DNA of 64,000 nt from NCBI RefSeq assembly GCF_003515945.1, contig NZ_QWLM01000012.1, positions 1 to 64,000 of the forward strand, given 5' to 3'. Positions within the stretch are counted from its first letter, which is position 1, and every line of letters begins with the position of its first letter. This document shows, in pieces, positions 1,892 to 23,548 of the stretch. Made by a program: the position numbers and the translations under genes. A model generated the notes under the pieces. It was not told the origin of the DNA. It ran no database searches and was given only the letters and a program-made list of their open reading frames with translations. This stretch comes from Dermacoccus abyssi (GTDB taxonomy: Bacteria > Actinomycetota > Actinomycetes > Actinomycetales > Dermatophilaceae).

Positions 1892-2090
1892 GATGTCATG
1901 TCATAAGCCGTTGCGCCAACCGGCAGGACACTGTCGCGAGCACACTTGTGCATCACGCTCATCACTTGCGGCCAACATGGTCGGTCTAATCCGGCCGGCC
2001 CTAGCCGTACCTCAGCCTCCCTTAGCCCATGCCGCGTCAGCCCATCGGGCGGCGGCGCGCTCGCCGCTAGGGTGCGGCAGACTGTGCCTC

Positions 2091-2471
2091 ATGGCCGTCA
2101 TTCAGACCCCCGAGGAGATCAAGACGATTTTGGCTCGCCTGGAGGGGCAGAGGATCGTCAACCTACAGGTGCTGGGGGTCAATTCGCTGAAGTCATTCTC
2201 GCCCCCACTTGATGCGCTGACTGACGATGCGATCGAGGGGTACGCAGTCTCGGATCGCCTCCTCACACTGACAACCACGCGTCATCGTGTGGCTTTTGAC
2301 CTACAGCGCACAGGGAAGATTGTATGGCTCCCTAGAGCGGAGCCCTACAGCGTGGCTGCTGGCTCCGTCCGCCCGACGGTCCGCCTCTTGCTCGGTGACG
2401 GACAAGGTCTCGACCTCACGGAACCGGCCAAGACTAAGCGGATCACGGTGACCGTCTCGGCCCGGACGTGA
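2091..2471 (+). CDS. Small protein resembling the Fpg/Nei N-terminal domain
   Basis: A 126-aa product starting MAVIQTPEEIKTILARLEG. The pattern L-x-G-x-x-I at the start, a central IEGYAVSDRLLTL ... VAFDLQRTGKIVW, and LLLGDGQGLDLTEPAKTKR near the end recalls the beta-sandwich N-terminal domain of formamidopyrimidine-DNA glycosylases. The catalytic Pro-Glu N-terminus (PELPE), the H2TH domain and the zinc finger are all absent. It is therefore either a truncated glycosylase gene or a stand-alone accessory domain. It lies 86 bp upstream of the ATPase gene on the same strand and could be the first gene of that operon. ATG 2091 was chosen because it opens the similarity; the ribosome site is weak. 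Function unknown; the family link is tentative. Confidence 0.45.
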   Translation: MAVIQTPEEIKTILARLEGQRIVNLQVLGVNSLKSFSPPLDALTDDAIEGYAVSDRLLTLTTTRHRVAFDLQRTGKIVWLPRAEPYSVAAGSVRPTVRLLLGDGQGLDLTEPAKTKRITVTVSART

Positions 2472-2557
2472 CGCGACCATTCAGGCGTGCTGGCAGTGTG
2501 ACATTCGCCCATCCGAGGAGCTACTCTGAGCCGACGCACCATGCACTGAGGAGGACC

Positions 2558-4009
2558 ATGAGCCGACACGCTCCCCGAGTCGACGATCTTCTGGTTTCCT
2601 CAAATTTCATCCGCGCTGTACGCGAGTCCGGATACCTCAGCATCTCGACTGCCCTCGCCGAACTGGTCGACAACTCCCTCCAGGCGTCGGCCTCCGAAGT
2701 GGCGATTTCTATCACCCGCGACGGGGCGGATGCCCTCCCCGAGATCGTGGTCGAGGACAACGGCTGTGGAATGTCGAAGGCCGAGTTGGAACTCTGCCTG
2801 CGGTTTGGCGGCTCTTCCCGCTTTGACGCCCGTCAGTCGTTCGGACGCTTCGGCATGGGGCTCCCGGCGGCGAGCCTCAGCCAGGCACGACGCGTCGAAG
2901 TGACCGCGTGGCGGGGTGGCGGCTATGAGCGCACAGTCGCTCTGGACGTGGATGCCATCGTGGCGGGGAGCGATCCGACGCCCGTCGCGAGCCGCGGATC
3001 ACGCGGAACTTCCTCATCAGGCTGCCGCGTGCGCTGGATTCAATGCGACCGGATCGAATACCGGCGTCTGGTCTGGCTGCAGCGTTCACTGCATCGGGAG
3101 TTAGGGCGGATGTACCGCCGTTTCATCGCCTCCGGTTTACGCCTGACGATCAACGGAACGCCGGTCGAAGCGGTCGACCCCACCATGCTGACCACCGCGG
3201 TCGAGGGAGCATCGGCGCGCCTGGCATTTGAGGAACTCCACTACGAGTTGGAGACGGCCGGCGGAGGAACCGCCATCGTGACGGTTCGTTTCGCCATGCT
3301 CCCGGTCGAGCGCTGGCACCAACTCGACAACGTCACCAAGCGTCGGGTTGGCATCGTCGGCAATGGAGGCGTCTCGATTCTTCGCGCCGGAAGAGAGATC
3401 GCTAATGGTTGGTACCTGATGGGCGGCAAGCGCAAGGAGAATTACGACGACTGGTGGCGGTGCGAGATCGAGTTCGACCCGAGCCTTGATGAGCACTTCG
3501 GCATCACGATCAACAAGCAAGGGATCCGGCCCTCCGCGATGCTTCGCGAGGCGATTGAGTCGGAATTGGAATCCATCGCCCGGATGCTCAATGCCCGCGT
3601 CCGTCAGGCCTTCGAGGACGTCAAGTTCCAGGCAGCCGCCGAGGCCTCCTGTCGGATCGCGGCGGCAGCCGACCCGGATCTGCCAGTGATCCCGTCGCCA
3701 GGGCGGAGCGGTGCGATCCAGTATCGGTTGTGGTCGGAGGCGCTGCCCATGGAGGCGATGTTCCATTCGGCCTTGTCCGATCGCACTCTCGACCTGACCA
3801 TGAACGCAGACCACCCGGCCTTCGCCGCGCTGTACCAGCCGCTCCAGGCCATTGAGGGTGAGGCGGCAGCCGAACTCCGCACCTCGCTCGAGCTATTCCT
3901 GCTGTCGTTCGCCCGCATTGCGGTCCAATTGGAGCGGGCCGGACAGCCGCTCGACGAACTCGTCCACGCATGGAGCAGTACGTACGGACGGATGCTGCAG
4001 AAGTCATGA
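2558..4009 (+). CDS. GHKL (HATPase_c/MORC-like) ATPase of a defence-like operon
   Basis: A 483-aa protein whose N-terminal third is a GHKL ATPase fold as in Hsp90, MutL, gyrase B and MORC proteins. The N-box ELVDN is at about residue 35, the Mg/ATP loop DNGCGM at about 67, and the glycine lid GRFGMGLPAAS at about 96. The rest carries a transducer-like beta-rich region and a helical C-terminus. GHKL/MORC ATPases act as ATP-gated clamps in DNA handling and recur in bacterial defence systems. The start is fixed by a strong GAGGAGG ribosome site 5 bases upstream. The stop overlaps the next gene (ATGA), so the DruA-like protein is translationally coupled. The partner and the trigger for ATP hydrolysis are not visible from sequence. 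Confidence 0.85.
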   Translation: MSRHAPRVDDLLVSSNFIRAVRESGYLSISTALAELVDNSLQASASEVAISITRDGADALPEIVVEDNGCGMSKAELELCLRFGGSSRFDARQSFGRFGMGLPAASLSQARRVEVTAWRGGGYERTVALDVDAIVAGSDPTPVASRGSRGTSSSGCRVRWIQCDRIEYRRLVWLQRSLHRELGRMYRRFIASGLRLTINGTPVEAVDPTMLTTAVEGASARLAFEELHYELETAGGGTAIVTVRFAMLPVERWHQLDNVTKRRVGIVGNGGVSILRAGREIANGWYLMGGKRKENYDDWWRCEIEFDPSLDEHFGITINKQGIRPSAMLREAIESELESIARMLNARVRQAFEDVKFQAAAEASCRIAAAADPDLPVIPSPGRSGAIQYRLWSEALPMEAMFHSALSDRTLDLTMNADHPAFAALYQPLQAIEGEAAAELRTSLELFLLSFARIAVQLERAGQPLDELVHAWSSTYGRMLQKS

Positions 4010-5994
4010 CTGACGACGCGAAAGGCGTTCCCCTGACCCTGCCCGCCGGTGCCACCCCAGCGGAACGCCGCGGCTTCACCAGCCTGTGCACCCTGCTGGC
4101 TCGTGCGCAGTTTGCTCCCGATACGCCGTTCGACCACGCGTTCTGGTTCACGGCTGCGGGACTGAAGGACCTCTATAACAAGCCGACGCTGGCCGCTGCT
4201 GCCCACACGGTCATCGACCTCGTCGACCAGGGTTGGACGGTTCAGGTCGATAAGTACGGTCCGCTGCTCAGCCCGCCCGATACGCATGCGGATCGGGATA
4301 CGGAGAAGGCTCGCATCCGCCGTCAAGAACACCTGCGTCGCGACGCCCAGCTGCGGCAACCGAGCGTGCGGCGCTTCGTGAGCAGCATGGAGCGCAGCCA
4401 TCAGCACGACGGCAAGCTGGTGTCGGTCTTCAACCTGATGCGCGACGGCCGGGAGCTAGCCGAGGCGCTCGCTGAGCACACTGAGGCAACCGACGCCATC
4501 CAGCCGTATGTACAAGTCGTAGACAGTGCCAGCATCTGCGAGCTGACCGGTTTCAAGCTGCACGACATCTGGCGGTACTTCCGCCACACGTGGTCGAACG
4601 CCTACTCGACGGTGCCCGGCCGCTCCATGCCAATCCTGATCCGGGATGCCGCTACCGAGCACCACGCCGTGATCGGGCTTGCCGCCATCTCTAGCCCGGT
4701 GGTCCAGATCGCCGAGCGCGACAACTGGATGGGGTGGGACACCAAGCAGTTCGTTAGTGCGATCGCGGTGGAGCCGACGGCCGCAGTCGCCCGGTGGCTG
4801 GCTCGCCGTATCGAGGCACAGCGCGACGAGATCTACGTTGACGACCTCCTGCGCGACGGCGTCCTGCAACCACGCGACCTGAAGGAGCCCGCGTCTGACG
4901 TCGTCGCTCGCCTGAAGGCGGATGCAGAGCGGCACCGCGCGAAGCACCACCGTGCGGGCGTGATCCGTGAGGTCCGCAACATCGAGACCGATGCATGGGT
5001 GGAGCGAGCTGAGACCCATCTGTTCCGGTCGAAGCGATCGGCGCTTCTCGCCGAGACGCTCGAGATCCAGTCACTAGTTGGCAGTTACCTCGGCACGACG
5101 GCCACCGTGGATGGACTCAAGAGGGCGCTGGATGACCCCAAGGCCAGGACGCAGATCGGGCGACTGGTTAGGCGGGCCCGTGGCGAGCGCGTAGGCACGG
5201 TTATCGCAGACCTAACGGTCTGCGGTGCCGTCGCACCGTATAACGCGCTGGCGGCAGGCAAGCTCGTCGGCGCCATGGCCACCTCTCCTACGGTGCTGTC
5301 TGCCTACCGGACGAAGTACGCGCGCCCCAGCGAGATCGCCTCGGCGATGGCGGGCCGCCCGATCACGCGTGAGGCCCGTTTGTCCTTCATTGGGACGACG
5401 TCGCTGTACGGAACAGGCTCCAGCCAGTACAACCGGCTGTTCTGGCCCGCCACTGCGATGGGGGGTGACGACGGTCAGCGGATGGGCTTCCACGAACTCG
5501 GCCGATCTCGCTCATTCGGAACGTCGCACTTCTCGGACGTGACTGTCGATGCACTGGTGCGACTGTCGCAACAAACCGGCGGCATGGTGCGGGTCAACAG
5601 CTTGTTCGGCGAAGGCGTAAGTCCTCGGCTGCGAAAGGTGCGGCTGGGTCTTGCAGCGCTGGGCTGGCCGACGAATGAGCTTCTCAGGCATGGCCGCGAA
5701 CGAATCCTCTACGGCGTACCACTCGTTGCGAACGTCCGGGACTACTCGCTCGGCATCGACAGCGAGCCTGACTACCTGCTCGATCCGGAGTCTCAGGATC
5801 AAGGTCAAGGGGTCGCACGTTGGTGGCTGGAGCGATGGGCGCTGAAACGGGCCGGCCAGGAGCATGTGCGCGAGGCGATGCGTGGGCACCGGCTTGTTCG
5901 GCCGATCCGCCACGGTGCGCGTGTACCACTGCCGAGCGACGACGATGGCCCGTCTGGCTTCTCGACACAGGCAGCGGGTGGCTCGCGGGCGTAG
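4006..5994 (+). CDS. DUF4338 (Druantia DruA-like) protein
   Basis: A 662-aa protein. The central and C-terminal parts follow the DUF4338 pattern: GRSMPILIRDA then AVIGLAAISSPVVQIAERDN and WMGWD (about 206-245), VIADLTVCGAVAPYNALAAG (about 399-418), SLYGTGSSQYNRLFWP (about 466-481) and GFHELGRSRSFGTSH (about 494-508). DUF4338 is the domain of DruA in type I Druantia, whose biochemical activity was not established as far as I know. At 662 aa it is longer than typical DUF4338 proteins, with an added N-terminal region and a charged helical insert (about 290-395). The start is set by an ATGA overlap with the ATPase gene. Its stop directly abuts the stop of the convergent nuclease gene. Confidence 0.7.
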   Translation: MTDDAKGVPLTLPAGATPAERRGFTSLCTLLARAQFAPDTPFDHAFWFTAAGLKDLYNKPTLAAAAHTVIDLVDQGWTVQVDKYGPLLSPPDTHADRDTEKARIRRQEHLRRDAQLRQPSVRRFVSSMERSHQHDGKLVSVFNLMRDGRELAEALAEHTEATDAIQPYVQVVDSASICELTGFKLHDIWRYFRHTWSNAYSTVPGRSMPILIRDAATEHHAVIGLAAISSPVVQIAERDNWMGWDTKQFVSAIAVEPTAAVARWLARRIEAQRDEIYVDDLLRDGVLQPRDLKEPASDVVARLKADAERHRAKHHRAGVIREVRNIETDAWVERAETHLFRSKRSALLAETLEIQSLVGSYLGTTATVDGLKRALDDPKARTQIGRLVRRARGERVGTVIADLTVCGAVAPYNALAAGKLVGAMATSPTVLSAYRTKYARPSEIASAMAGRPITREARLSFIGTTSLYGTGSSQYNRLFWPATAMGGDDGQRMGFHELGRSRSFGTSHFSDVTVDALVRLSQQTGGMVRVNSLFGEGVSPRLRKVRLGLAALGWPTNELLRHGRERILYGVPLVANVRDYSLGIDSEPDYLLDPESQDQGQGVARWWLERWALKRAGQEHVREAMRGHRLVRPIRHGARVPLPSDDDGPSGFSTQAAGGSRA

Positions 5995-7212
5995 TTACGA
6001 CGACACCGCGTACCACTCCGACGTGCTGACCATCGCGATGACGAGACGCGTGTCCTTGTCGGGGTCGATCGTTCGCCTGACCCCGAGGAGGCGCACCTTG
6101 TCGCCCTGAGGGAACGGCACGTGGCTCTCCACAGTCCGGACAAGGACCTGTGTCGCGTCGTCGGTCTCGAGGAACCAGCTACGACTTCCTTGGGGACGAA
6201 GGACTCGCCCTTCGAAGTCAAACCATTCCTCGGTGGTCGCCTCGGACACGTTGGGCGGGATGCTCAGCCAGTAGCTGTCGCACAGGTGTTTGACCTGGCA
6301 GAACTGACAACCCTCGACGCTAGGCGTCGCCGACGGAGCGGTGGCCGCGGTGACTTCGTCGGCAGCCGCAATGCGTTCCACCATTCCGGCCTGGAGGGCA
6401 TTGAGCGCGGCCGAGTCCGGTGGCTCGACTGAGAGTGTGTGAGATGGGTATGCAAGTTCGAGCTTCGTCGCTGGGCGAGAGTAGGGATTGGTCTGCTCGT
6501 CCAACTGCCACAGCAATGCGTAGAGGCGTACCTGATCGGCATGGCCATGGTCCTCGTCCCCTGTCTTGAAGTCGACCACGGCGACGTCTTTGTCATCGAC
6601 GACGAGCAGATCGATTCGTCCCGTCAGACGCAGTTCTTCGGCGCACACTTCTCGCTCCGAATGGGTTCCTGACGTCACCGGGAGCCGCTTGTGGGATTGT
6701 TCCGACGACTCACCACCGGCTGACGTCCTCCCGGTAGGTAGCGCTCGCCGGCCGAGGAATGTCTTCACCTGATCCGCGGCCTGCGGTGCGCGGCGAATCA
6801 ACTCTTCCCGCAGGCGATCGATCCGCTCACGACTGACGCGGGGGTTGTCATCGAACTGAGCCAACTGATGATCGATCTCTTTGAGAACGATGCCGCGCCA
6901 GCCACCCTGCTCACCCAGGACGCCGATCACGGCGCTCGGGCTGGCAAATTTGATGCCCGCGTCAGCGAGCGCCTCAGCGAGACGTTCGACGACGCCATGC
7001 ACGACGTTGCCGAAGACACCGGCCGCAGCGGGCTGCTGTGGGTATCCGCGACGATCCCAGACATCTGGGTATGTGGCGCGCGACAGCATCCAACGACGAG
7101 GACACGCCTCCATCTCCTTTAGCGATGAATAACTCCACAACGCAGGCGTCACCGGCCAATAGCCCCAGATTCCGGGGACTTCCGTGTCGAACCGAGCGGC
7201 CAGAGCGTTCAC
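5995..7212 (-). CDS. Cas4/AddB-like PD-(D/E)XK nuclease with Fe-S cysteines
   Basis: A 405-aa RecB-family nuclease. SYSSLKEMEACPRRWML (about 27-43) carries the first Cys (37) and GNVVHG (68-73) the conserved His. GRIDLLVV gives Asp201 and VVDFKTG gives Asp214 and Lys216, the catalytic D...DxK set. CQFCQVKHLC (302-311) gives three further Cys. One Cys before and three after the catalytic core is the layout that holds a 4Fe-4S cluster in Cas4, AddB and Dna2. A DNA end-processing role is therefore likely. The GTG start overlaps the helicase stop as GTGA, so it is the last gene of the minus operon and coupled to the helicase. No cas1 or cas2 is nearby, so a CRISPR adaptation role is unlikely. Confidence 0.8.
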   Translation of the reverse strand: MNALAARFDTEVPGIWGYWPVTPALWSYSSLKEMEACPRRWMLSRATYPDVWDRRGYPQQPAAAGVFGNVVHGVVERLAEALADAGIKFASPSAVIGVLGEQGGWRGIVLKEIDHQLAQFDDNPRVSRERIDRLREELIRRAPQAADQVKTFLGRRALPTGRTSAGGESSEQSHKRLPVTSGTHSEREVCAEELRLTGRIDLLVVDDKDVAVVDFKTGDEDHGHADQVRLYALLWQLDEQTNPYSRPATKLELAYPSHTLSVEPPDSAALNALQAGMVERIAAADEVTAATAPSATPSVEGCQFCQVKHLCDSYWLSIPPNVSEATTEEWFDFEGRVLRPQGSRSWFLETDDATQVLVRTVESHVPFPQGDKVRLLGVRRTIDPDKDTRLVIAMVSTSEWYAVSS

Positions 7213-10200
7213 CGGACGAACTCCAGCACCTCACGCGACGCACTCGGAAGGCTGCGAGCAATCACCAGATCGTCGATGAGCCTGACTCGCTCGAAGGTCT
7301 CCTGATTCACACGGTGGAGTTCGAGAGACGGAGCAACGTCGGGCGTCAGTGGGTTGTGGATACCGATGAGCGCTCGATCGCCGTTCGCCTTGTTGGCCAG
7401 GATCGGCACGAGGACTTCTCCGATGCCCTCGACAGGGACCGTCGCGTTGCGTTCGAAGGTCACGTCCTCGATGCCCGAACGGACGAGGTCCTCGAATAGA
7501 CGATCGGCCGATCGACCGAGGCGTTGTTGCGACAGCATCGGCAGCGTCCCGTCGAGCAGGTAGCGCAGCAAACTCGCTCCGACGTGTCGATCAAGCTGCG
7601 TGTGCTCGAAGCGGTTGCGAAAGCTCCGCAGACAGCGGTAGCAGGACTCTTCGCAGTCGGCCGGACACTTCTCAAGGCGCTCCAGCGCGGCCTTGAAGAT
7701 GTCCACGCCGAGCCTGCTGATCTGCTCGGTGAAGCCAGCGCCACCAGCCAGCGTGTCGTAGAGATAGATCTCTGCTTCGCGCCCATGTCCCCCAAGGGGA
7801 GTCAGCGCGGGCCGGAACTCTGCCTGGAGTTCGCTCGCCTCAATCTCAAGCATCTCGGTGGCGGCAATGGTCAGTGCTTCCGCCACAGTGCGGAGAGCGA
7901 CCTGCGAGGACAGATACGAGGGCCGTAGCGTCACTGGGTCGGCAACGGCGAGTCGAATGAGGAGGACGTCCGAGATGAAGTCAGTGCCGAGCACCAAGCC
8001 ACGTGTGGCCCGCCCGCCAGGGCACATGGCGTCCTTTGGATCAGTCGGGAACGGCTTGGCATGGGTTCCGGCGAGCAGCGGCGTCGGCATTGCTGTCGGC
8101 TCGATGAGACCGCACCAGGTGCAGAACGTGTAGCCCTCGTTGCGTGGACCCGTGTTGGAGACGAGAAGTGTCTGACGGTCAAAGTTCTGCTGTACGCGGT
8201 CCGTGATGGAATGCCACAGATTCTCGTCGCCAGGACCGTGTGCGATGAGCTTGGCCCGGGTCGCGTAGGAGATGGCTGGGGCATCGTCGGGGCTGGTGCC
8301 CGGCGGCTCCGTCACGGCATGCGCAAAGCCCGGCGGGCGTAGCCAGTTCATGCCGGGGCCGAATCGCTCGCCCTTACAGGCCGGACAGCAGACGGTGTGT
8401 CCGCGGTCGGCCTGCTCCCACGGAATATGGGTGGCGTGGTGGCAGTCCTGGCATTCGAAGTACATGAGGCGGTCACGCCAGGCATCGGCGAGTTCGCCAC
8501 GCATCGGGGAGTAGAGCGCAGTCGATGTCCACTCGCGCTTGTCGACCCAGACGACCTTGCCCGGCGCGTACTGGCTCAACGCAACGCTCAGCCCTTGACT
8601 GGGTGCGTACTGGAAGACCGGACGGAACGGCGTTGATCGGTCGTCATCGAAGATATGGAAACTGACGACATCCGTTGGGAAGGCATAGCGCGGCAGCACG
8701 CCCTTGTAGAGCAGCCGGTCGAGCAGTTTGGTGCGTGCTCGCTGCGAGTCGAGGTCCTCGCCGCCATCCTCAGCCGGGTTGTCCGACTCCACGGTGGTAT
8801 CTCCGTCTGTGACGGCCCGCTCGTCGTCCTCGTCGGCGATGTCACCCGGGCTCGACTCCGGTTGCGTCTCGCCCTCCTCGTCATCAGCGGTTCCGGCAGC
8901 CCCCGTGCCGGTTGTGAGGTCCAGCGCTTCGTCAATATCGCTGAGTGTTGTCTTGATCAGACCGTCAAGAAGGCCATTACGCTGGTTGCCACCGATTTCC
9001 TCGGGCAGCCAATCGTCGACCTCAGCCCGGAGCTTCGACTCATTGGACGCGAGCCACATCTCGAAGTCGGTTCGGTTCAGAGTCGCGGTGTCGGATAGGA
9101 AGTCAGTGACCGATCCGAGCACCTCGAACAGGTTGGCTGGCATGGTCTCGGGATCGAAGGTCTGGACTCGGTCCTGGTGATACCGCTGGAGCAGGAACGC
9201 CGTGACGTGACGCTTGGCGATGTCGATGTTGCCCATGGTCAGGATCGGGTCAGTGACGTCGCCGCTGATCATGTCCTGTGGCTCGCGGAAGTAGTGATCG
9301 TCGTGCGTGTCCGCGCTACCAAACGCCACAACCGTGGCGACGGCATTGCCGCGGCGTCCGGCACGTCCCGCCCGCTGCTGGTAGTTGGCGCGGGAGGGCG
9401 GCATGTTGCGTAGCGCGACGCCGCTCAGGCTGCCGATGTCGATTCCGACCTCCATCGTGGTGGTGCACGACAGCAGGTCAATCGCCACATCTTGCTGTTC
9501 GTCCCGTGCAGGCACAGCGATGTTCACGTCCTGGAACAGCAACTCGTACATCTCCGCTTTTGAAAAGATGTCGTCCGTCTGCGACGAGTTGAGCTGAGCG
9601 GTGTGCTCCGCTGCCACGATGCTCATTACCTCGCCTGCCGGTGTCGCTAGTGCCCGCATCGAACTCGCGCGGTAGTAGCCCTTCCGTGCGGTGAAGACCG
9701 CGTCCTCGGCGGGCTTGAGGTTCCGAACCTTGTCGGCGCCGCAGGAGATGCACGTTGACCTGCCTGGGAACGGGCGTTGCGTAAAGCGGCACTTGTCGCA
9801 ATAGCCCCATTCCCCATCCAGTTCGAGCGCAACGTTTTGCGCCTGGAGTTGGTACTTGTCGCCCACCTTCTTGCAGAACTTGGCCTGTAGGACCGGCAGC
9901 CACTCGGTCTCGAAGGTCTTGCGGGCTTCCTTGGTCCCGAGCCACCTAGTCAGCTTCGTGAATTTGCCTGTCGCACTCTGAACCTTGGTTCCCTTCCACT
10001 CCGCACTCATCGCGGAGAACCAGATTCCCTGGCGGATCCAAAGCGAGAGCCACAGACGAACGAGCGCCAGCTTCTCCTCGGGAGTGACGGCCACACCAGG
10101 AATGTCGATCAGTTCGTCGAGGAACTCGTCGCGAAGGTTGCCGCGTTCGCGGAGCGAGGCCAGACCAAGCGCCGAGAAGTTGTAGTAGCGGCTGGTAAGG

Positions 10201-12827
10201 GTTGGTACGAGGCTTCGAAGGAGCGATTGCGGCGGATCATTCGGCACGGAGTACAACTGGATGAACTGGGCCGGATCGGTGAGCGCGCCCTTGTCGATGG
10301 ACTTCGACACCTGCGCAAACGCCGTGAAGTCCTCGGTGCCGGTCAGTTCGGGGCGGAGTCGAACGCCGAGCAGTTTGGCGCCGACCATGGCGGCTAGATA
10401 GAGGTTCTCCAGACTCAGCGCCGGCGCGACCATCTGCTGCTTCGAGAGTTCAGCCCACCCCTTCAGCACGATCGGCCGGATCGCGTCCTGGAGCGAGTAG
10501 TTCTGCAGGTTCGGGGCAAGGCGGGCCGCGACCTGACGCGAGTCAGAGAACGCCAGCACCTTGCGTCCACGGAGGGGCGCGAAGCCATCGGCTGCCTGCG
10601 GGCCGGGCGGCTGCACCTCGATCTGTCGACTGACGAGCGCCTGAAACGGCTGATCGCCCTTCGTCTGGTGATCCTGAACGCTGGTTCGACCGAAGTTGGC
10701 TTTGTCGCCGCAAACCCCACACGGAATGAACTCGCCCGTGATTTTCGACTTCTCTGAGTCGTCATCGTCACCGATTGTCTGTTCACCGTGTCTCGGATAC
10801 CGCAGCCAGACCTGTCGCCAGCGCTCTCCGAGGCCGTGGGGATTGAGTCGGCCGGTGATGAGGTCAAGTTCCTGCAACTGCGCGTAGTCAATGTCATCGG
10901 ACGGAGGCTCAAGCAGCAGATCGATCGGCAGCAGTTCGGCGACCGGCCCAGATGCGGCGTTGAAGGCGCGGCCCGGTTCCTGCCAGAGGAAGGTCGGATT
11001 CTCCAGATCGTCGGTGTAGGCACGCGCATACGCGGCGCCGCATTGGCGGCAGGTGTAGAGCTCGAATACCCGAGCCCCGCAGTCGCAGGTCTGTTGCGGT
11101 TGTCCGTACATGGCACCAGTCGGGCCCTTCGGGATCCCGCCGCGATCAACGGTGCAGTTCTCGTCGAGGCAGGCCCAGAGGCCAGGGAGGCCACGGAAGA
11201 AGGCGTGTACACGGCACGGCAGGAGGCCCGCCTCGTCGTCGCTCAGTCGCGCGGCGCTCCCCAAGGAGATCAACGTCGAGACTGCCTGCTCTGCAATCGA
11301 CTGTTCGGCGTCGGGAAAGACCAGCGCACCCAGATCGCTGACCGGCAACGCCTTCTTCATCGTCTCGTTGACCAGGCGCGCGAGTGGTGGAAACGCACGG
11401 AGCGCCTCATAGAGCGTTGCACTCGCAGTGGCGCCATCGTCGGGAACTGCGTCGAGGTAGTCGAGCAACTCGGCTAGGGCTGCGAGTCGAGTCGAGTCAT
11501 CTTCGGCCGCGTAATACGAGTCCATGGGCACTGCGGCGAGTACCTCCGCATCGGAAGTCGACCCGGGGGCATCGGGCTTCCTCAGGTCGAGGTCACCCGT
11601 GACGGCTTCGGCGAAGTCGCTCACTTGCTTGCCGGTCAGCGCGGCCGCAAACTCGCGGGCGTAGTCCTTGCTTGAGAAGCTGGCGCTCGTCGCAATGACC
11701 TGCACACGATCGGCAGGGATGCCGAGTCGGGCACGAAGTCGCCGCATGAGGAGCGCGACCTCCGCCCCAGCCGCGCCGCGGTAGAGGTGCGCCTCGTCGA
11801 TGATGAGGAGGAACTTCTCCTCCGGGTTGTCCTGGAGCCACTGACGGGTGGCATCAAAGATCGGCCGTTCGAGCGGCCGCATCAGCATGTACTCCAACAT
11901 CGAGTAGTTGGTGATCAGGACGTCGGGCGGCCAGTTGAGAACCTCGTCGCGAGTCAGCAACTCGGCATCCTCCGGCCGCATCACCGCTCGGCGCGGCTTC
12001 TTGGTCTTGCGGTCGAACCACTCGCCCGAGCCGTACCACGCAGCGAGGTCTGGTTTCGCGGGCCACTTCCCCCGAGACCTCAGCTCCTTGATCAGTTGCT
12101 TCGATCGCTCTTGGCGAGGTGAGCCGTCCTTGGCCGCCTCCTCCAGCAGGGTGATGTAGTAACGCTTGATCGAGTTGAGTCGAAGTCCGTCCTTCTTGGC
12201 GGTTCGGACGCCGGGGTACAGCGTGCGGCTGGTATAGCGCGCGAAGCGGGCAGGTCGGTCTGCCCAGGCCGTGAACTGCGAGGTCACTCGGTCGTCGCCC
12301 AGCAGCAGACGCAGGCGGCCAAGCTGATCGTTGACGAGCGCGTTCATCGGGTACAGCACGAGTGCACGCACCGCTGGGGCGGCGAAGGAATCGGGTCGGT
12401 TCGCCGCCTCTTGAGCGAGCTTGGCCAGCATCGGCAATAGGAAAGACTCGGTCTTTCCCGAGCCGGTACCGGTCATGACGACCAGGCTCTTGCCGTCACG
12501 TGCTATTCCCTCTAGCGCGGTCGCCTGGTGGGTATACGGCGGGTCAAAGACGAGCGGCTTCTGACCGCCGTCCTTCGACGTCAACGTGGCGAACAACTGG
12601 TGCACAGCGGGATCGAGGTCGAGGTCGGCGAACCGCTTGCCGGGTGTGTAGCGTGGCGTGCTCTCCAGGAACGGCGACTGATACGTGTTGCCAGGTTGGT
12701 CAAGCAGCAACTGGCGCTGCCGGATCAGGGAGGGGTGACCGATGTGGTAAGTCGCCTCGATGTACTCGCGAAGAGCCTGGCGAATCTCACTGATCGTCTC
12801 GGCGATCGTCAGAGCACGCGTCGTCAT
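7209..12827 (-). CDS. Giant DEAH helicase with C-terminal DUF1998/MZB-type region, DruE-like
   Basis: An 1872-aa superfamily 2 helicase. Walker A TGTGSGKTES is at about 119, VLYPMNALVNDQLGRL at about 157, DEAH in LLIIDEAHLYRG at about 344, and motif VI QRAGRAGRRG at about 1150. Two zinc-ribbon-like Cys groups sit near 570-620 and 1000. The C-terminus carries CPADCEESCYRCL (about 1715), the Cys cluster of DUF1998/MrfA-type zinc-binding domains. Helicases of this size with this end are the DruE proteins of Druantia; DrmA/DrmB of DISARM split similar parts over two genes. An acidic low-complexity linker lies around 1300-1350. It begins one base after the upstream 359-aa gene and overlaps the downstream nuclease. 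Expected role: ATP-driven translocase or nucleic-acid sensor of the module. Confidence 0.85.
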   Translation of the reverse strand: MTTRALTIAETISEIRQALREYIEATYHIGHPSLIRQRQLLLDQPGNTYQSPFLESTPRYTPGKRFADLDLDPAVHQLFATLTSKDGGQKPLVFDPPYTHQATALEGIARDGKSLVVMTGTGSGKTESFLLPMLAKLAQEAANRPDSFAAPAVRALVLYPMNALVNDQLGRLRLLLGDDRVTSQFTAWADRPARFARYTSRTLYPGVRTAKKDGLRLNSIKRYYITLLEEAAKDGSPRQERSKQLIKELRSRGKWPAKPDLAAWYGSGEWFDRKTKKPRRAVMRPEDAELLTRDEVLNWPPDVLITNYSMLEYMLMRPLERPIFDATRQWLQDNPEEKFLLIIDEAHLYRGAAGAEVALLMRRLRARLGIPADRVQVIATSASFSSKDYAREFAAALTGKQVSDFAEAVTGDLDLRKPDAPGSTSDAEVLAAVPMDSYYAAEDDSTRLAALAELLDYLDAVPDDGATASATLYEALRAFPPLARLVNETMKKALPVSDLGALVFPDAEQSIAEQAVSTLISLGSAARLSDDEAGLLPCRVHAFFRGLPGLWACLDENCTVDRGGIPKGPTGAMYGQPQQTCDCGARVFELYTCRQCGAAYARAYTDDLENPTFLWQEPGRAFNAASGPVAELLPIDLLLEPPSDDIDYAQLQELDLITGRLNPHGLGERWRQVWLRYPRHGEQTIGDDDDSEKSKITGEFIPCGVCGDKANFGRTSVQDHQTKGDQPFQALVSRQIEVQPPGPQAADGFAPLRGRKVLAFSDSRQVAARLAPNLQNYSLQDAIRPIVLKGWAELSKQQMVAPALSLENLYLAAMVGAKLLGVRLRPELTGTEDFTAFAQVSKSIDKGALTDPAQFIQLYSVPNDPPQSLLRSLVPTLTSRYYNFSALGLASLRERGNLRDEFLDELIDIPGVAVTPEEKLALVRLWLSLWIRQGIWFSAMSAEWKGTKVQSATGKFTKLTRWLGTKEARKTFETEWLPVLQAKFCKKVGDKYQLQAQNVALELDGEWGYCDKCRFTQRPFPGRSTCISCGADKVRNLKPAEDAVFTARKGYYRASSMRALATPAGEVMSIVAAEHTAQLNSSQTDDIFSKAEMYELLFQDVNIAVPARDEQQDVAIDLLSCTTTMEVGIDIGSLSGVALRNMPPSRANYQQRAGRAGRRGNAVATVVAFGSADTHDDHYFREPQDMISGDVTDPILTMGNIDIAKRHVTAFLLQRYHQDRVQTFDPETMPANLFEVLGSVTDFLSDTATLNRTDFEMWLASNESKLRAEVDDWLPEEIGGNQRNGLLDGLIKTTLSDIDEALDLTTGTGAAGTADDEEGETQPESSPGDIADEDDERAVTDGDTTVESDNPAEDGGEDLDSQRARTKLLDRLLYKGVLPRYAFPTDVVSFHIFDDDRSTPFRPVFQYAPSQGLSVALSQYAPGKVVWVDKREWTSTALYSPMRGELADAWRDRLMYFECQDCHHATHIPWEQADRGHTVCCPACKGERFGPGMNWLRPPGFAHAVTEPPGTSPDDAPAISYATRAKLIAHGPGDENLWHSITDRVQQNFDRQTLLVSNTGPRNEGYTFCTWCGLIEPTAMPTPLLAGTHAKPFPTDPKDAMCPGGRATRGLVLGTDFISDVLLIRLAVADPVTLRPSYLSSQVALRTVAEALTIAATEMLEIEASELQAEFRPALTPLGGHGREAEIYLYDTLAGGAGFTEQISRLGVDIFKAALERLEKCPADCEESCYRCLRSFRNRFEHTQLDRHVGASLLRYLLDGTLPMLSQQRLGRSADRLFEDLVRSGIEDVTFERNATVPVEGIGEVLVPILANKANGDRALIGIHNPLTPDVAPSLELHRVNQETFERVRLIDDLVIARSLPSASREVLEFVR

Positions 12828-12828
12828 G

Positions 12829-13908
12829 TCACTGATCTTCCTTGATTGAGGTCATCCAGAGGGAGTTGGAGAGAAACTGCTCGGCATCGTCTATCGCGCC
12901 GGCAGGCAGGCAGTAGGTGAAGAGCGACTTCGGCCCCTTCGGCGCCGACCATCCACTGATTGCCAAGTAGCGCTCGGCCCACGTAGGCAACGGCGCGAAG
13001 AAGTCCAAAAACGTGCCGCCAGTTGGCGACCCGTCGCGGCGACGTCGAAAGGTCTGCGGAGTGCCGCGCTCCGCATCGAGCGCGGCCTGAATGCGCCGAG
13101 CCTCGTCCCAGCCCGGCGCGATGCTTGAGTTCACCGGAAGGTCCAGCACTGATTGCGGCACACCCCCCGCCATCTCGATGGCGCACCAGATTGGCGCGCC
13201 GTAGGCCTGTGGACGGCGCCCGGTGAAGATGCCCGTGTGCTCCTCGGCCGGCTCGTTCCATCGGCCCTTGTAGAAGTGCATCGGCCGTGAGGGGTCGATG
13301 ATCGTCAGTCCGGTGACGACACCCGGGGCTCGCTCAGCGGCAAATTGCTTGCGCAGGTGATCGAGCACCTGCGCGGCAGGCTCGATTCGCGGTGCCTTGG
13401 TCCACTGCTCCTTCGAGATTCGGTGCAGTCCGGCCGCGATAAGCGTCTCTTGGCCCGTTGTCGGGTCTAACAGGACGGACCGTGTGTGCCCATCGTGGAT
13501 GACCTCGACATCCTCGGCAACTTGGTCGACGAGCGCAATATTTCGTGGCCGGACCCCGAGCAGCATGTATTCGCCGGGCTGCTTCTCAACGAAGGATGGT
13601 GGGCCGAGGAACAGGAGACGAGTTCGTTCGCCCGGCTGGCGGAGTTCCAGCAGATCGCCGGACATCAAGAGGGCATCAAGCGCCTCGACGACTGTGTCAC
13701 GGTCGAGATCCTCGGCCAGTGGTGCGAGTGCATTCATGACGGTATCGACGATCTGACGAGGCGAAGCCGGACAGAGAAACGACGCGGTTCGTCGCAGTGA
13801 GGCGCACAGTGCCTCAGTCGAGAGAAGGTCGATCACCTCGTGATCCAGGCCGAGGATGGCCACCGCGCGGGCGGCGACCTCAGCCCGTTCGATCCGTTGG
13901 ACGGTCAT
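12829..13908 (-). CDS. Unknown protein of the Druantia-like operon (359 aa)
   Basis: I do not recognise this family. The 359-aa protein has a helical N-terminal third (RAEVAARAVAILGLDHEVID...), possibly winged-helix-like since DTVVEALDALLMSGDLLELR reads like a DNA-binding or partner-binding wing. A mixed alpha/beta region with PMHFYKGRW and YGAPIWCAIEM follows. No signal peptide, membrane segment or known catalytic motif is visible. It sits between the 952-aa protein (ATGA overlap upstream) and the helicase (one-base gap downstream), so all are made from one coupled message. A role as helicase partner or specificity subunit is plausible by position but is inference. Confidence 0.75.
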   Translation of the reverse strand: MTVQRIERAEVAARAVAILGLDHEVIDLLSTEALCASLRRTASFLCPASPRQIVDTVMNALAPLAEDLDRDTVVEALDALLMSGDLLELRQPGERTRLLFLGPPSFVEKQPGEYMLLGVRPRNIALVDQVAEDVEVIHDGHTRSVLLDPTTGQETLIAAGLHRISKEQWTKAPRIEPAAQVLDHLRKQFAAERAPGVVTGLTIIDPSRPMHFYKGRWNEPAEEHTGIFTGRRPQAYGAPIWCAIEMAGGVPQSVLDLPVNSSIAPGWDEARRIQAALDAERGTPQTFRRRRDGSPTGGTFLDFFAPLPTWAERYLAISGWSAPKGPKSLFTYCLPAGAIDDAEQFLSNSLWMTSIKEDQ

Positions 13909-16763
13909 CCCACGCCTCCCGCTACTTCATCGATCGTTCCCAGCACCGCAAAGCGAGCAGATCGCACAAGCACTGGATCGGTGAGAACACAGCGCAGGTA
14001 GTGATTCAGCTCGTCCTCGTCCCAGTCGGCAAGCTCGCCAGGGGAACTAGCGAGTTGCAGCAGGAATCGAGCGCCCTTGCGGGTGTCCTTCATGCCGCTC
14101 GACGTCGCCAGGTCGGAGATCGCTGCGGTGAATCCCACGATCAGCGCCTCCGGAGTGTTCCACTCCCATAGGCGCGAGGCGATCGCTTGCGCCGTCGCCC
14201 GCTGCGGCGTCGTATCACCCACCAGCTTCTGGGCGCGATTCAGATCGACGTCCTCCGGTGCAAGGTCCGCGATCTGGTGCTCAAAGTGCGCCCACCGCCC
14301 GGGAGCCAGCATCACTGCCATCGCCGTGGTGAGCGTCTGAAGCACCCGCACCCGGTCTCGCACACCAAAGGGGTGGGCAGGCAGCTCGGCGGCACTCCAG
14401 CGGCGGTGGTGGTGGATGAGCGTGCAAACCTCGTCCAGTGACTTGGGGCGCGCAGGTAAGGACGGTGTTGTCGGCCCGATCCGAAGCAACTCGTTGGGGT
14501 CAGGCGGGATGATCTGTCCCGCAACCTGGTCACCGCTGGAAGCCCACAGCAGGCCGCCTCGGGGTGGGCCAATGAACTCCTGTTCTGGAGCGTGAGTTGT
14601 CGCACTGAGCGGACGATCCATCGGGTAGAAGTCAACCGAGACCGACTCGCCGTCGGTTCGGTCGATGAGGCGTGCCCGATAGCCGCTCTGGTGGTCCTTG
14701 TTGAGTACCCACCGAAGGCCGCGGAAGCCGCGTTCGCAGGCGATGCGGGCGAACCCGACCCCCGCCCGGCTGATCGTCACGTCGGCCACGTCGGCTTCGT
14801 CGTAGTGTCGCGCCAACTCGTTGCTCTCCCGAAGCTTCGAGAACACCCGGCGCCAGTCTTCTCCCGATACCGGCAACTCCAAAGTTCGCTTGAGCGTGTC
14901 GCCCAGCGGCTTCGCGTCCCCGTCTTGCAGCGTGATGAGCAGATCGGCTCGCGTCGCCTCGGGGCCGTCCACCTCGATAACGGCATGGCCGTCCCACAAC
15001 TCCGGCAATGTCGGCTGTGCGGGGGAGGTTCGGACGCGGATGCCCTCGCCCGCCGAGAGACCTTCGGCCGGAGCTTGGGGGTCGACGATCGATACCGTGA
15101 GCGTCCCGCTGACCTGGCGCGCGTCGTGCTCGGGGTCGCCCAGTGACACCACAACCTCATGGGTGCCGGTTGCCAGCCCGTCGAGCGACAGGAACAGGTC
15201 GGTCTCACCGGACGGCCATTCAACGTAGTACGGGTCGCCATTGATCGTCAGGCGACAGTTCTGCGGCGAGTGTTCGGCGTGGATCATAACGAGGATCGGC
15301 TCACCGGCGAGCCACTCGGCCGCGCCCTCGCCGTCCCAACTGCTGGCTGCCACTCCCGCCGGCTGAATCGATAGATCCGACACAATCGAAAGTCCGGCCG
15401 CGACGAGCGCCCTTGACTCTTCCTCAGAGATTGCCTTTGGCACGTCCAGTGAGTACATGGTCGTGCCATTGACGGCAGGCTCGACAGGCTCGCACCACGC
15501 GACCTCCGGCGGATCCAGGTCCGGTGCTCCGAGGATGACGTACCGGCCGCCCGGGCGGACGAATTTGCCCTTGATCTCCGGCGCCGGCTGTCCCTGTTTG
15601 CGCCGGAAGACCCACCACGGGCCGCGCGTCATTCGGCACTGGTCTGCAATCAGGAGGTTCACTTCTTGCGGCGCGCCTGCCAACTGAAGGAACGGGTCCC
15701 GGGGCGACGGCCAGGTGGACAATTCGATGGGTGCGAGTGCATAGAGGAGGGCTCCGCTCCGGATGATGTCCTTTGACCCGGCCACGGAGGCTCGTGCGCG
15801 ACGCATCTCGTCGTAGACGACATGCAGACGATGTTGCAGCGGCTTCAGGTCTGGGATGACCGCGTAGGCGTGCCAAACGCCGTCCAACTCCCTGAGTTGC
15901 AGCTTCGGGTCCGTCAGGGCAGGCGGACGTCGTTCGACCTTTCCTGTCCCTGCGTCACCGCCGCCTGACGCCGCCTTGAAGTTGCGAGTCCGGACCGTGC
16001 TGGCGCAGCGCCGCGCATCGTGCAGCCACCGCCGTGACTGGCGCTCGCTATTGAGGCTGTCGACGAGACGGTCAAGCGTTGACGACTCGATGTAAGGCGA
16101 GGGCGTGTCCTCGCCTGAGAGGAGGAGGGCGACCGCCACGTGGCCAAGCAGGGCGGTGTTCTGACAAAACTTCTCTAGCCGTTCGCCGTAGTAGCGCGAC
16201 CAGGAGTGGAGCCGGATGCCCAGCGCTTGGGGATCGTCCAGCAGGCTCGGCCACGCCGTCCGATAGTCGAACAGCATCCGAGCCAGTTGCACTTGCAGGT
16301 AGCGAGGCAAAACGGCGTGGGTGATCGGCCAGGCGATCTTCCGGAACGTGGTCGCCCAGGCGCCACGGGGGATCGCGCCGCCGTACTCGCTGGAGAACTT
16401 GTTGAACCATGCGCGAACGCAGTCGCGCTCGTACTCGCTGTCGATCCAACCCGGCGTCGCCTTCGCATAGATCGGCCAGAACTCGATGCCATCGTAGATG
16501 TAGCCAACCTCAGCGGCGTGGACGACGAGCGGCAACCACCAGCGACTCGAAGCTCGGGTAATGATGCGCTCGGTATGCGCCGCCACGACGGCATCGTGGA
16601 GGAGCTTGCGGTCGTCCCCATCCAGTCCGTGTTCGAGCGCGAAGACCGGCGCCGGCGTGCCGAGTTGCTGGCGTCGCTCATGAATCGCGCGGAAGTGCGC
16701 ATCGAGCAGACCGTGGAAGAACTCCAAGGTTTCGGCGGTGCTGCCCTTCCGGACTTCAACCAT
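13905..16763 (-). CDS. Unknown large protein of the Druantia-like operon (952 aa)
   Basis: I do not recognise this family. The 952-aa protein has an N-terminal region rich in aromatic residues (EVGYIYDGIEFWPIYAKA, then WSRYYGERLEKFCQNTALLG), a middle with beta-sandwich character (about 400-640, including EILV- and GLATGTHEVVVSLGD-type strands), and a helical C-terminus. No Walker, nuclease or methyltransferase motif is evident, and no membrane segment. The ATG lies about 10 bases after AAAGGGGG. Its stop overlaps the next start as ATGA. The large size and first position in the operon recall the big unknown subunits (DruB, DruC, DruH) of Druantia systems, but homology cannot be claimed from inspection. 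Confidence 0.75.
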   Translation of the reverse strand: MVEVRKGSTAETLEFFHGLLDAHFRAIHERRQQLGTPAPVFALEHGLDGDDRKLLHDAVVAAHTERIITRASSRWWLPLVVHAAEVGYIYDGIEFWPIYAKATPGWIDSEYERDCVRAWFNKFSSEYGGAIPRGAWATTFRKIAWPITHAVLPRYLQVQLARMLFDYRTAWPSLLDDPQALGIRLHSWSRYYGERLEKFCQNTALLGHVAVALLLSGEDTPSPYIESSTLDRLVDSLNSERQSRRWLHDARRCASTVRTRNFKAASGGGDAGTGKVERRPPALTDPKLQLRELDGVWHAYAVIPDLKPLQHRLHVVYDEMRRARASVAGSKDIIRSGALLYALAPIELSTWPSPRDPFLQLAGAPQEVNLLIADQCRMTRGPWWVFRRKQGQPAPEIKGKFVRPGGRYVILGAPDLDPPEVAWCEPVEPAVNGTTMYSLDVPKAISEEESRALVAAGLSIVSDLSIQPAGVAASSWDGEGAAEWLAGEPILVMIHAEHSPQNCRLTINGDPYYVEWPSGETDLFLSLDGLATGTHEVVVSLGDPEHDARQVSGTLTVSIVDPQAPAEGLSAGEGIRVRTSPAQPTLPELWDGHAVIEVDGPEATRADLLITLQDGDAKPLGDTLKRTLELPVSGEDWRRVFSKLRESNELARHYDEADVADVTISRAGVGFARIACERGFRGLRWVLNKDHQSGYRARLIDRTDGESVSVDFYPMDRPLSATTHAPEQEFIGPPRGGLLWASSGDQVAGQIIPPDPNELLRIGPTTPSLPARPKSLDEVCTLIHHHRRWSAAELPAHPFGVRDRVRVLQTLTTAMAVMLAPGRWAHFEHQIADLAPEDVDLNRAQKLVGDTTPQRATAQAIASRLWEWNTPEALIVGFTAAISDLATSSGMKDTRKGARFLLQLASSPGELADWDEDELNHYLRCVLTDPVLVRSARFAVLGTIDEVAGGVG

Positions 16764-16781
16764 CCCGGAGCACCCCCTTTC

Positions 16782-17016
16782 TCACTCGACCCAGGCTGCG
16801 TGCATCAGTCTGGTGGATGGGACCGATAGTTTCAGGGGATACGGGATCAGATGTGTGGGAAGCGCAAAGTCCAACCCGGCATTGGCTACAGCGTCGGATA
16901 GATGACCGGCGATCGGCCTGCCAGAAGAATGGGAGTGCTGCAGCCCCCTCAAACATCGAGTCATGCGTCGCCACCGGATCAATGATCGTGCGCTGCGGCT
17001 TTGCCTCGCTCGTCAT
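16782..17016 (-). CDS. Possible small ORF ahead of the 952-aa gene, apparently frameshifted
   Basis: An ATG preceded by a good ribosome site (AAAGGGGG, 6 bases away) begins MTSEAKPQRTIIDPVATHDS and continues through FEGAAALPFFWQADR. After that a different frame looks more protein-like (IAGHLSDAVANAGLDFALPT to LMHAAWVE) and stops within the leader of the 952-aa gene. The original frame instead runs to a stop at 16756 with poorer codon bias. The most economical reading is a small gene of about 78 residues with one frameshift, or two alternative short ORFs. Homology unknown. It would be the first gene of the minus operon. Confidence 0.35.
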
Positions 17017-23541: not shown

Positions 23542-23548
23542 CATCACG

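What the first reader, a model, noticed from the sequence alone, without database searches (positions are those of the whole stretch)
2091..16763. Druantia-like defence module with an unfamiliar gene set
A DUF4338 (DruA-like) protein and an 1872-aa DUF1998-type helicase (DruE-like) are the two hallmark genes of type I Druantia. Here they are combined with a GHKL ATPase, a Cas4-like Fe-S nuclease and two large unrecognised proteins, and with a split two-operon layout. I know of no described Druantia type with this composition. The nuclease could supply the cutting activity that canonical Druantia lacks. It may be a new subtype, or a hybrid with DISARM-like systems that also use DUF1998 helicases.
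Basis: partly seen in the sequence, partly recalled or inferred. Interest (0 to 1): 0.88.

Follow-up and report, generated by a model that had tools for sequence, protein, structure and literature searches.

The report
Two-part Druantia variant with extra genes
A seven-gene, probably anti-virus locus in an actinobacterium is a recurrent, apparently undescribed relative of the known Druantia defence system, made of two facing halves that seem to have been exchanged between genomes, one of which also occurs beside a different DNA-restriction machine.

Summary
Window 2091-16763 encodes, in two convergent operons with abutting stop codons, a lone Fpg-type domain, a GHKL ATPase and a long DruA (plus strand), and a RecB/Cas4-like Fe-S nuclease, DruE, DruD and a 952-aa unrecognised protein "X" (minus strand). 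DruA, DruD and DruE match PADLOC's type I models strongly (916, 398, 1,986 bits); X sits where DruB-DruC sit in E. coli, without a DruB/DruC hit. The set recurs: of 81 loci (window plus 80 DruA relatives) 80 have GHKL directly upstream of DruA, 49 hold GHKL+DruA+X+DruD+DruE, and 29 of those 49 the nuclease. Two E. coli type I loci lack GHKL, nuclease, X and Fpg domain. DruE and DruA trees conflict (AU p = 2.2e-5), which points to exchange of the halves. Long DruA also lies beside DndFGH/SspFGH-like genes. Reading: a type I-related Druantia variant in which GHKL-DruA is a portable recognition or self-marking half and X-DruD-DruE-nuclease the destruction half. Gene content and recurrence are shown; function is inferred. 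The window is not a DISARM hybrid. No paper naming Druantia with GHKL, MutL or HATPase was found in the open library searched.

The parts
2091..2471 (+). Small gene, 126 aa: N-terminal domain of Fpg/MutM DNA glycosylases standing alone, without N-terminal Pro-Glu, H2TH or zinc finger
   Evidence: Most aligned homologues have a Met at the same place; 10 of 19 family members match PF01149 at E<=10, best 1.9e-6, though the window's own member gives no hit; 57% identical to the copy in G363
2558..4009 (+). GHKL (Bergerat-fold) ATPase, about 483 aa (ORF open from GTG 2468)
   Evidence: PF13589 77 bits; MzaB only distantly (PADLOC 80 bits; NCBIfam 94 bits against cut-off 850); E65, D68-N69, D97, G99, G101, G126-R127, G129, G131 in 79 of 79 aligned sequences, window included
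4006..5994 (+). DruA, long form (DUF4338), probable GNAT fold with a helical insertion
   Evidence: PADLOC DruA1 916 bits; model pLDDT 89.3, pTM 0.88; listed rows with Z>=5 are GNAT-type or related acyltransferase folds, best Z 8.3, Foldseek alone not significant; about 146 profile positions have no counterpart in E. coli DruA
5995..7212 (-). RecB/AddB/Cas4-type PD-(D/E)XK nuclease with an Fe-S cysteine set, 405 aa
   Evidence: PF12705 88 bits; H72, D201, D214, K216, Q227, Y231 and C37/C302/C305/C311 in 26-27 of 27 aligned sequences; start overlaps the DruE stop by 4 bases (coordinates)
7209..12827 (-). DruE, YprA-family DEAD/DEAH helicase with MrfA zinc-binding (DUF1998) domain, 1,872 aa
   Evidence: PADLOC DruE1 1,986 bits; Walker A GTGSGKT and DEAH in 52 of 52 aligned sequences
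12829..13908 (-). DruD, 359 aa
   Evidence: PADLOC DruD1 398 bits, full length
13905..16763 (-). Protein X, 952 aa: helical N-terminus, Ig-like beta-sandwich region, helical C-terminus; stands in the place of DruB-DruC
   Evidence: No hits at E<=0.1; 40% identical to the G363 copy; model pLDDT 85.1, pTM 0.44; Ig-like matches at about 462-561; weak link to two DruB-like proteins

Best explanation
A Druantia type I-related anti-phage system built of two facing half-operons. SHOWN (sequence level): X-DruD-DruE-nuclease forms one tightly packed operon and [Fpg-N]-GHKL-DruA the other; both recur together, have conflicting trees, and keep intact ATPase, helicase and nuclease motifs. INFERRED: X (Ig-like scaffold) and DruD load the DruE translocase on invading DNA; DruE unwinds it but has no active nuclease of its own, so the linked Fe-S PD-(D/E)XK nuclease cuts. 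GHKL-DruA is the recognition half: the GHKL ATPase acts as an ATP-dependent DNA clamp or switch, DruA (GNAT fold) transfers an acyl-type group, most attractively onto host DNA bases as a self mark, and the catalytically bare Fpg domain reads a base by flipping it. In this view GHKL-DruA does for Druantia what methylases do for DISARM, and can be plugged into another destruction half (DndFGH/SspFGH-like).
For: Profile matches. GHKL directly upstream of DruA in 80 of 81 loci, a linkage not used in selecting them; 49 of 81 with GHKL+DruA+X+DruD+DruE (42 convergent, 6 on one strand, 1 divergent), 29 of 49 with nuclease, 21 of 49 with Fpg-N. Motifs. Two E. coli type I loci give profile hits to DruA and DruE only among the seven. 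A nuclease of this family also adjoins DruE in four haloarchaeal plasmids (56-92 bits) and in Meiothermus (52 bits). Tree conflict: six-locus clade in DruE with SH-aLRT 100, rejected for DruA, AU p 2.2e-5. GHKL-DruA plus Fpg-N beside DndH/SspG/SspF-like genes in Micromonospora L056, no DndC match in that genome; SspF-like genes in 4 of 81 loci and, with long DruA but no GHKL hit, in six plasmid loci, four of which also hold DruE. GNAT fold of DruA, stated for DUF4338 in PMC10853773 (passages); GNAT proposed as self-DNA modifier in another system in PMC12839542 (passages).
Against: No experiment. 20 of 49 core loci show no such nuclease: 5 are cut at or just past DruE, 9 have a DUF4365 pair in its place, and 6 have nothing between DruE and DruA. 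No direct sign that DruA modifies DNA: fold matches are modest (best Foldseek E 1.9; best Z 8.3) and the usual GNAT acyl-CoA loop is not obvious in its conserved GAxxPYNxLxGGKL motif. GHKL is not universal to DruA: no GHKL hit in 11 of 11 other DruA loci searched, 5 with short DruA and 6 with long DruA. 15 of 81 loci show GHKL-DruA with no other core gene within reach. X shows no relation to E. coli DruB or DruC. DndFGH is often decoupled from Dnd modification genes anyway (PMC10853773, abstract and passage), so the missing DndC is weak support, and the DndC search had no control above its cut-off.
Confidence: 0.45

Rival explanations
1. Two separate defence units side by side: GHKL-DruA is a complete system of its own, and X-DruD-DruE-nuclease is a DruA-less Druantia or YprA system. 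Their adjacency is defence-island clustering.
For: 15 of 81 loci carry GHKL-DruA alone within reach; the two halves have conflicting trees; GHKL-DruA or long DruA occurs beside DndFGH/SspFGH-like genes.
Against: 49 of 81 loci hold both halves, 42 of them in the same convergent order, and E. coli type I has DruA in one operon with DruB-E. Several 'alone' loci are short or cut by contig ends (locus lengths).
Confidence: 0.2
2. DruA is an effector: a GNAT-type toxin that modifies host proteins or tRNA in abortive infection, held or released by the GHKL ATPase, with DruE and the nuclease as sensor or first line.
For: PMC10853773 proposes variable N-terminal domains of DndF, DUF4338/GNAT among them, as co-effectors that may target self proteins (passages); DruA has many invariant polar residues like an enzyme.
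Against: DruA is found with different restriction machines that bring their own nucleases or ATPases, which fits a common recognition part better than a spare effector. Nothing tested.
Confidence: 0.15
3. Ordinary Druantia type I in which GHKL, nuclease and Fpg-domain genes are passengers without a role.
For: DruA, DruD and DruE score as type I; Nitrosococcus watsonii has DruA(short)-X-DruD-DruE without GHKL, nuclease or Fpg-domain hits.
Against: GHKL linkage to long DruA in 80 of 81 loci from several phyla with ATPase motifs intact; nuclease catalytic residues intact.
Confidence: 0.1

Closest known systems
Druantia type I (E. coli druABCDE)
   Same: DruA (27.9% identity over 226 aa plus a second matching stretch), DruE (33.7% over 1,846 aligned columns), DruD (13 bits at profile level only)
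   Different: No DruB/DruC hit, protein X instead; long DruA with an insertion of about 146 positions; GHKL ATPase, Fe-S nuclease and Fpg-type domain added; two convergent operons instead of one
Four-gene type I-like locus of Nitrosococcus watsonii plasmid pNWAT01
   Same: X (28.6%), DruD (34.8%), DruE (49.3%) in the same order
   Different: Short DruA; no GHKL, nuclease or Fpg-domain hit
DndFGH/SspFGH-type restriction modules with DUF4338
   Same: DruA-type protein beside or fused to an SspF/DndF-like subunit (a DUF4338-DndF fusion is reported in PMC10853773, passage)
   Different: HerA/FtsK-type ATPase machine; the window has none of these genes in its cluster
MZA (MzaB)
   Same: Related GHKL ATPase (PADLOC 80 bits)
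   Different: Far below the NCBIfam cut-off (94 against 850 bits); no other window protein matched an Mza model among the PADLOC rows shown
ARMADA, BRIGADE, TALON and DISARM (YprA-helicase systems, PMC12458937)
   Same: YprA-family helicase at the centre
   Different: No methylase, second SNF2-type helicase or other hallmark gene of these systems recognised among the seven

Membership tests
Druantia type I | DruA (DUF4338) | tested here: met
   PF14236 94.7 bits (cut-off 27), PADLOC DruA1 916 bits
Druantia type I | DruE of the type I clade | tested here: met
   DruE1 1,986 bits against DruE2 663, DruE4 616, DruE3 570; no tree with published types was built
Druantia type I | DruD | tested here: met
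   DruD1 398 bits
Druantia type I | DruB | tested here: not met
   No DruB hit for X at E<=0.1; X matches two DruB-like proteins only weakly (hhalign E 3.8e-4, probability 36%; 25-28 bits), not E. coli DruB
Druantia type I | DruC | tested here: not met
   No gene in the cluster matches a DruC model; X gives nothing against three DruC or DruC-position proteins
Druantia types II, III, IV | DruM/DruF/DruG, DruH or DruL beside DruE | tested here: not met
   No such PADLOC hits among the nine ORFs of 827-17415; weak DruK hits (49 bits) for the nuclease only; for DruE only the best 25 of 44 rows were printed
DISARM | DrmA helicase, DrmB and methylase | tested here: not met
   DrmA only 46 bits for DruE; no methylase domain
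Fpg/MutM DNA glycosylase | N-terminal Fpg fold (PF01149) | tested here: met
   At family level: 10 of 19 members match at E<=10, best 1.9e-6; the window member itself shows no hit; no structure was predicted
Fpg/MutM DNA glycosylase | Catalytic N-terminal Pro-Glu, H2TH and zinc finger (recalled) | tested here: not met
   The conserved start reads M-A-x-x-Q or similar, no Pro-Glu, and the conserved protein is about 126 aa
CRISPR Cas4 | NCBIfam cas4 above cut-off | tested here: not met
   36.4 bits against 65; superfamily motifs and Fe-S cysteines present
GNAT acyltransferase (DruA) | GNAT fold | tested here: inconclusive
   Listed rows with Z>=5 are GNAT-type or related folds, best Z 8.3 (rmsd 4.2 over 167 residues); Foldseek best E 1.9; a paper states the fold for DUF4338 (passage)

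The most novel reading that the evidence does not exclude
GHKL-DruA (with the Fpg-derived reader in actinobacteria) is a general self-recognition cassette, a GNAT-based DNA base-marking and reading device, that prokaryotes couple to at least two unrelated DNA-destruction machines: the YprA/DruE machine and the DndFGH/SspFGH-type machine, in haloarchaeal plasmids to both at once with a DruA alone. That would give Druantia a self/non-self mechanism and reveal a non-methyl, non-phosphorothioate restriction-modification principle.
Probability: 0.22. Interest if true: 0.85.

Novelty: new variant of a known kind. Interest (0 to 1): 0.62.

Why it matters
To my knowledge (recalled, not searched for) the roles of DruA to DruD in type I Druantia, and how self DNA is spared, are unexplained. 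This variant adds an intact nuclease, a GHKL ATPase and a glycosylase-derived domain to the type I core, giving concrete handles on who cuts, who senses and what is read. The reuse of DruA beside DndFGH/SspFGH-like modules makes a single question testable: is DruA a DNA-marking enzyme? PADLOC's models give strong matches for only three of the seven proteins.

Tried and rejected
DISARM hybrid for the window: rejected by scores. X as a DruB-DruC fusion: DruC gave nothing, DruB only a weak link to two intermediate DruB-like proteins and none to P. putida or E. coli DruB, so X is left as a possible distant DruB counterpart. Nuclease presence explained by the state of DruE's C-terminus: no difference seen by eye between loci with and without nuclease. 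Fpg domain by PDB sequence search: only a chance-level biotin-ligase hit, E 0.18; Pfam on family members worked. Fpg domain in viral contigs: 30 stretches matched a pattern, none was a relative. tRNA-Leu att repeat at the island edge: no second copy in the window; two other partial matches in the genome; the window begins at the contig start, so the other edge is out of view. DruB profile in 369 genomes of the class of Halotalea as a control set: 1 weak match, so E. coli, P. putida, Meiothermus and Nitrosococcus loci served instead. Not all short-DruA loci are free of nuclease: Meiothermus L105 has a distant relative (52 bits) between DruA and DruE. The insertion in long DruA as a GHKL contact: not tenable as a rule, since haloarchaeal and Hymenobacter DruA have the insertion without a GHKL hit; the N-terminal part of the short DruA was left unaligned, so one search is the basis for the insertion, for E. 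coli only. Foldseek of DruA gave no significant PDB match; VIA-align is a second look only. Literature: Druantia with GHKL, MutL (99), HATPase (126) gave 0 papers; formamidopyrimidine with antiphage 0 (100); the four terms together 0. The library holds open-licence papers only, and the original Druantia paper (Doron 2018) was not read, so its type I gene list is recalled.

Rows dropped before counts: the 153 relatives were cut by the tool to 80; the 80 include near-copies (L047 and L055) and two loci of one MAG (L094, L097). Nuclease alignment kept 27 sequences over 300 bits; GHKL alignment 79 of 400 aa or more and 500 bits or more, DruD 52 of 300 aa and 300 bits or more; DruE alignment 52 longer than 1,700 aa, including L005, L022, L103 and L104; trees 47 loci, leaving out L073, L074, L092, L093 and loci without DruA of 600 aa and DruE of 1,500 aa. 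The trees are quick ones (LG+G4, no mixture model, SH-aLRT only) and both carry long-branch warnings. The six-locus group tested was chosen from the per-gene identity table, which also showed DruA values. The tally thresholds were chosen by me and the count repeated.
Full report
WHAT IS THERE. The window (contig C12 of a 3.16-Mb, 55-contig genome) carries seven genes at 2091-16763. Plus strand: a 126-aa protein (2091-2471), a GHKL ATPase (ORF 2468-4009, likely start 2558) and DruA (ORF 3970-5994, likely start 4006, overlapping the GHKL stop by ATGA). Minus strand: X, 952 aa (16763-13905), DruD (13908-12829), DruE (12827-7209) and a nuclease (7212-5995), packed with 4-base overlaps or a one-base gap (coordinates). 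The two operons face each other with stop codons that touch at 5994/5995.

IDENTITIES. DruA matches Pfam DruA (94.7 bits, cut-off 27) and PADLOC DruA1 (916 bits); DruE matches DruE1 (1,986 bits) far better than DruE2, DruE3 or DruE4 (663, 570, 616 bits); DruD matches DruD1 (398 bits). The GHKL protein is a distant relative of MzaB. The nuclease is a PD-(D/E)XK enzyme (88 bits) with only weak Cas4 and DruK scores. X has no hit at E<=0.1 in Pfam, PADLOC or NCBIfam. The 126-aa protein has none by itself, but 10 of 19 aligned family members match the Fpg N-terminal domain PF01149 at E<=10, best 1.9e-6; the proteins lack the N-terminal Pro-Glu, and at about 126 aa have no room for H2TH and zinc finger (those features recalled).

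RECURRENCE. A scan of genome contigs (one genome for each of 84,980 species) with a DruA alignment gave 153 relatives, of which the best 80 loci were kept. With the window, 81 loci were scored with profiles of the seven proteins: GHKL directly upstream of DruA on the same strand in 80 of 81 (in the other, L062, GHKL is present but DruA is broken in two); GHKL+DruA+X+DruD+DruE in 49 of 81; of these 49 the nuclease in 29 and the Fpg-type gene in 21. Of the 49, 42 are convergent like the window, 6 have DruA and DruE on one strand (for example Halotalea L067, Desulfobulbus L069) and 1 is divergent (L090). Of the 20 without the nuclease, 5 end at or within 200 bases after DruE (L066, L069, L078, L090, L091), 9 hold a DUF4365 protein and a 397-aa unknown between DruE and DruA, and 6 have only 41-289 bases there. 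One contig classed as viral (L103) carries GHKL-DruA-X-DruD-DruE. In 394 genomes drawn from the window's class, only the window genome and one other (G363) gave a near full-length match for X and for long DruA; the other 2 and 3 matching genomes were weak and partial.

CONTROLS. The seven profiles were also run over 11 other DruA loci. Two E. coli loci annotated druA-druE match only the DruA and DruE profiles; P. putida L104 (its DruA, DruB, DruC and DruD match PADLOC's models) matches DruA, DruE and weakly DruD; Nitrosococcus L005 has short DruA-X-DruD-DruE; Meiothermus L105 has short DruA, a distant nuclease relative (52 bits) and DruE. None of the 11 has a GHKL or Fpg-domain hit. Two intermediate loci among the 81, Myxococcus L073 and Steroidobacter L074, have GHKL and long DruA with DruB-like and DruC-position proteins before DruD and DruE. 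So X stands where DruB-DruC stand. X and the intermediate DruB-like proteins share a weak stretch; X and E. coli DruB or DruC share none that I could detect.

MOTIFS. GHKL: E65, D68, N69, D97, G99, G101, G126, R127, G129 and G131 in 79 of 79. Nuclease: C37, H72, D201, K216, Q227, Y231 in 27 of 27 and D214, C302, C305, C311 in 26 of 27. DruE: GTGSGKT and DEAH in 52 of 52; the C-terminal region shows no obvious nuclease motif whether or not a nuclease gene is linked (read by eye). The counts include the window's own sequence. Bell et al. (PMC12458937; Results parts 1-2 of 3, legends and passages read) describe the C-terminal domain of type I DruE as an inactivated Vsr nuclease. In Streptomyces-type loci the nuclease place is taken by a DUF4365 protein (39 bits) and a 397-aa unknown.

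FOLDS. X (pLDDT 85.1, pTM 0.44, so domain arrangement unsure): helical residues 1-256, beta-rich middle with Ig-like matches at 462-561 (for example Nir2 Z 8.7, rmsd 2.2 over 81 residues), helical 756-950. DruA (pLDDT 89.3, pTM 0.88): no significant Foldseek match, but the listed VIA-align rows with Z>=5 are GNAT-type or related acyltransferase folds (Kre33 complex Z 8.3, an N-acetyltransferase Z 8.1; the fold of some rows is recalled). PMC10853773 (passages) states that DUF4338 is a GNAT domain. The motif GAxxPYNxLxGGKL is shared by E. coli and long DruA; relative to E. coli DruA, the long-DruA profile has about 146 extra positions between two matched stretches.

MODULARITY. Window, L027, L044, L046, L052 and L058 form a clade in the DruE tree (SH-aLRT 100) but not in the DruA tree (AU p 2.2e-5, log-likelihood difference 252); holding only window and L027 together is not rejected (p 0.107). 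Long branches are flagged in both trees. Relatives also combine DruA and X-like proteins with an SNF2-type helicase, a NERD-helicase protein and a DruE-like helicase: Leisingera L016 and Paracoccus L018 in full, L059, L060, L063, L065 and L077 in part. In Micromonospora L056 GHKL-DruA and the Fpg-type gene flank DndH/SspG/SspF-like genes, and a DndC model found nothing in that genome. SspF-like proteins occur in 4 of 81 loci (L056, L082, L095, L102). Long DruA with SspF-, SspG- and SspH-like genes, without a GHKL hit, occurs in six plasmid loci: Hymenobacter L019, where one ORF includes DruA and the SspF-like part, and haloarchaeal L020, L021, L109, L110, L111; four of these (L020, L109, L110, L111) also hold DruE with a nuclease relative at its end.

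MECHANISM. See Best explanation. Druantia III, as described in a 2026 preprint (PMC13192584; abstract, outline and one section seen), uses DruE as a helicase-nuclease on ssDNA-containing intermediates; here the nuclease would be a separate protein. The GNAT-as-self-mark idea is mine for DruA; a GNAT self-modification role was proposed for another system in PMC12839542 (passages). The rival in which GNAT domains attack self proteins is from PMC10853773 (passages), which also reports that DndFGH is often decoupled from the modification genes.

NOVELTY. The core is Druantia type I-like and partly covered by PADLOC; the combination with GHKL, Fe-S nuclease, X and the Fpg-type domain, the conflict between the two halves and the sharing of GHKL-DruA with DndFGH/SspFGH-like genes were not found in the searches listed under Tried and rejected (the DUF4338-DndF fusion is known). 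I file it as a new variant of a known kind, not as a member of type I, since DruB and DruC were tested and not met.

Noticed in passing
L019 (Hymenobacter canadensis plasmid) 10692-14288: DruA and an SspF-like domain lie in one ORF, followed by SspG- and SspH-like genes.
   Followed up: partly
L020, L109, L110, L111 (haloarchaeal plasmids): A DruE operon with a nuclease relative and a DruA-(SspF-SspG-SspH)-like operon are neighbours, divergent in three and convergent in L111; one DruA may serve two destruction machines.
   Followed up: partly
L007 and L008 (Azospirillum and Rhizobium plasmids): X-like proteins stand beside an SNF2-type helicase and, on the other strand, helicase, DUF1998, UvrD and NERD genes, without a DruA hit.
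   Followed up: partly
L103 (viral contig IMGVR_UViG_3300036770_007174): The GHKL-DruA-X-DruD-DruE set lies on a contig classed as viral, all on one strand.
   Followed up: no
L073 8381-9424 and other loci: A 340-415-aa protein follows long DruA in several proteobacterial and myxobacterial loci (nine profile matches, one of them weak); no Pfam hit for the L073 copy.
   Followed up: partly
L022 11309-13065, L027 6015-7900, L043 533-2490: A DUF4365 protein and a 397-aa unknown form a linked pair that sits between DruE and DruA in Streptomyces-type loci and elsewhere in two others.
   Followed up: partly
L016, L017, L080, L081, L083, L087, L091, L094, L097: A second, longer GHKL-type gene stands upstream of the GHKL-DruA pair.
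   Followed up: no
window 827-1708: IS481-type transposase ORF, probably incomplete, next to the plus-strand operon.
   Followed up: no
window 20735-25730: Two ORFs that look by eye like tyrosine recombinases (only a weak NCBIfam match, for the first; no Pfam hit), a transposase-like ORF and tRNA-Leu; no second copy of the tRNA end in the window.
   Followed up: partly
window 41512-41849: tRNA-Ala and tRNA-Ile stand together, but Rfam at gathering threshold finds no ribosomal RNA in the window.
   Followed up: no
L094 11732-14624: A TIR-type Argonaute-associated protein and a short Argonaute (PADLOC) lie directly downstream of GHKL-DruA.
   Followed up: no
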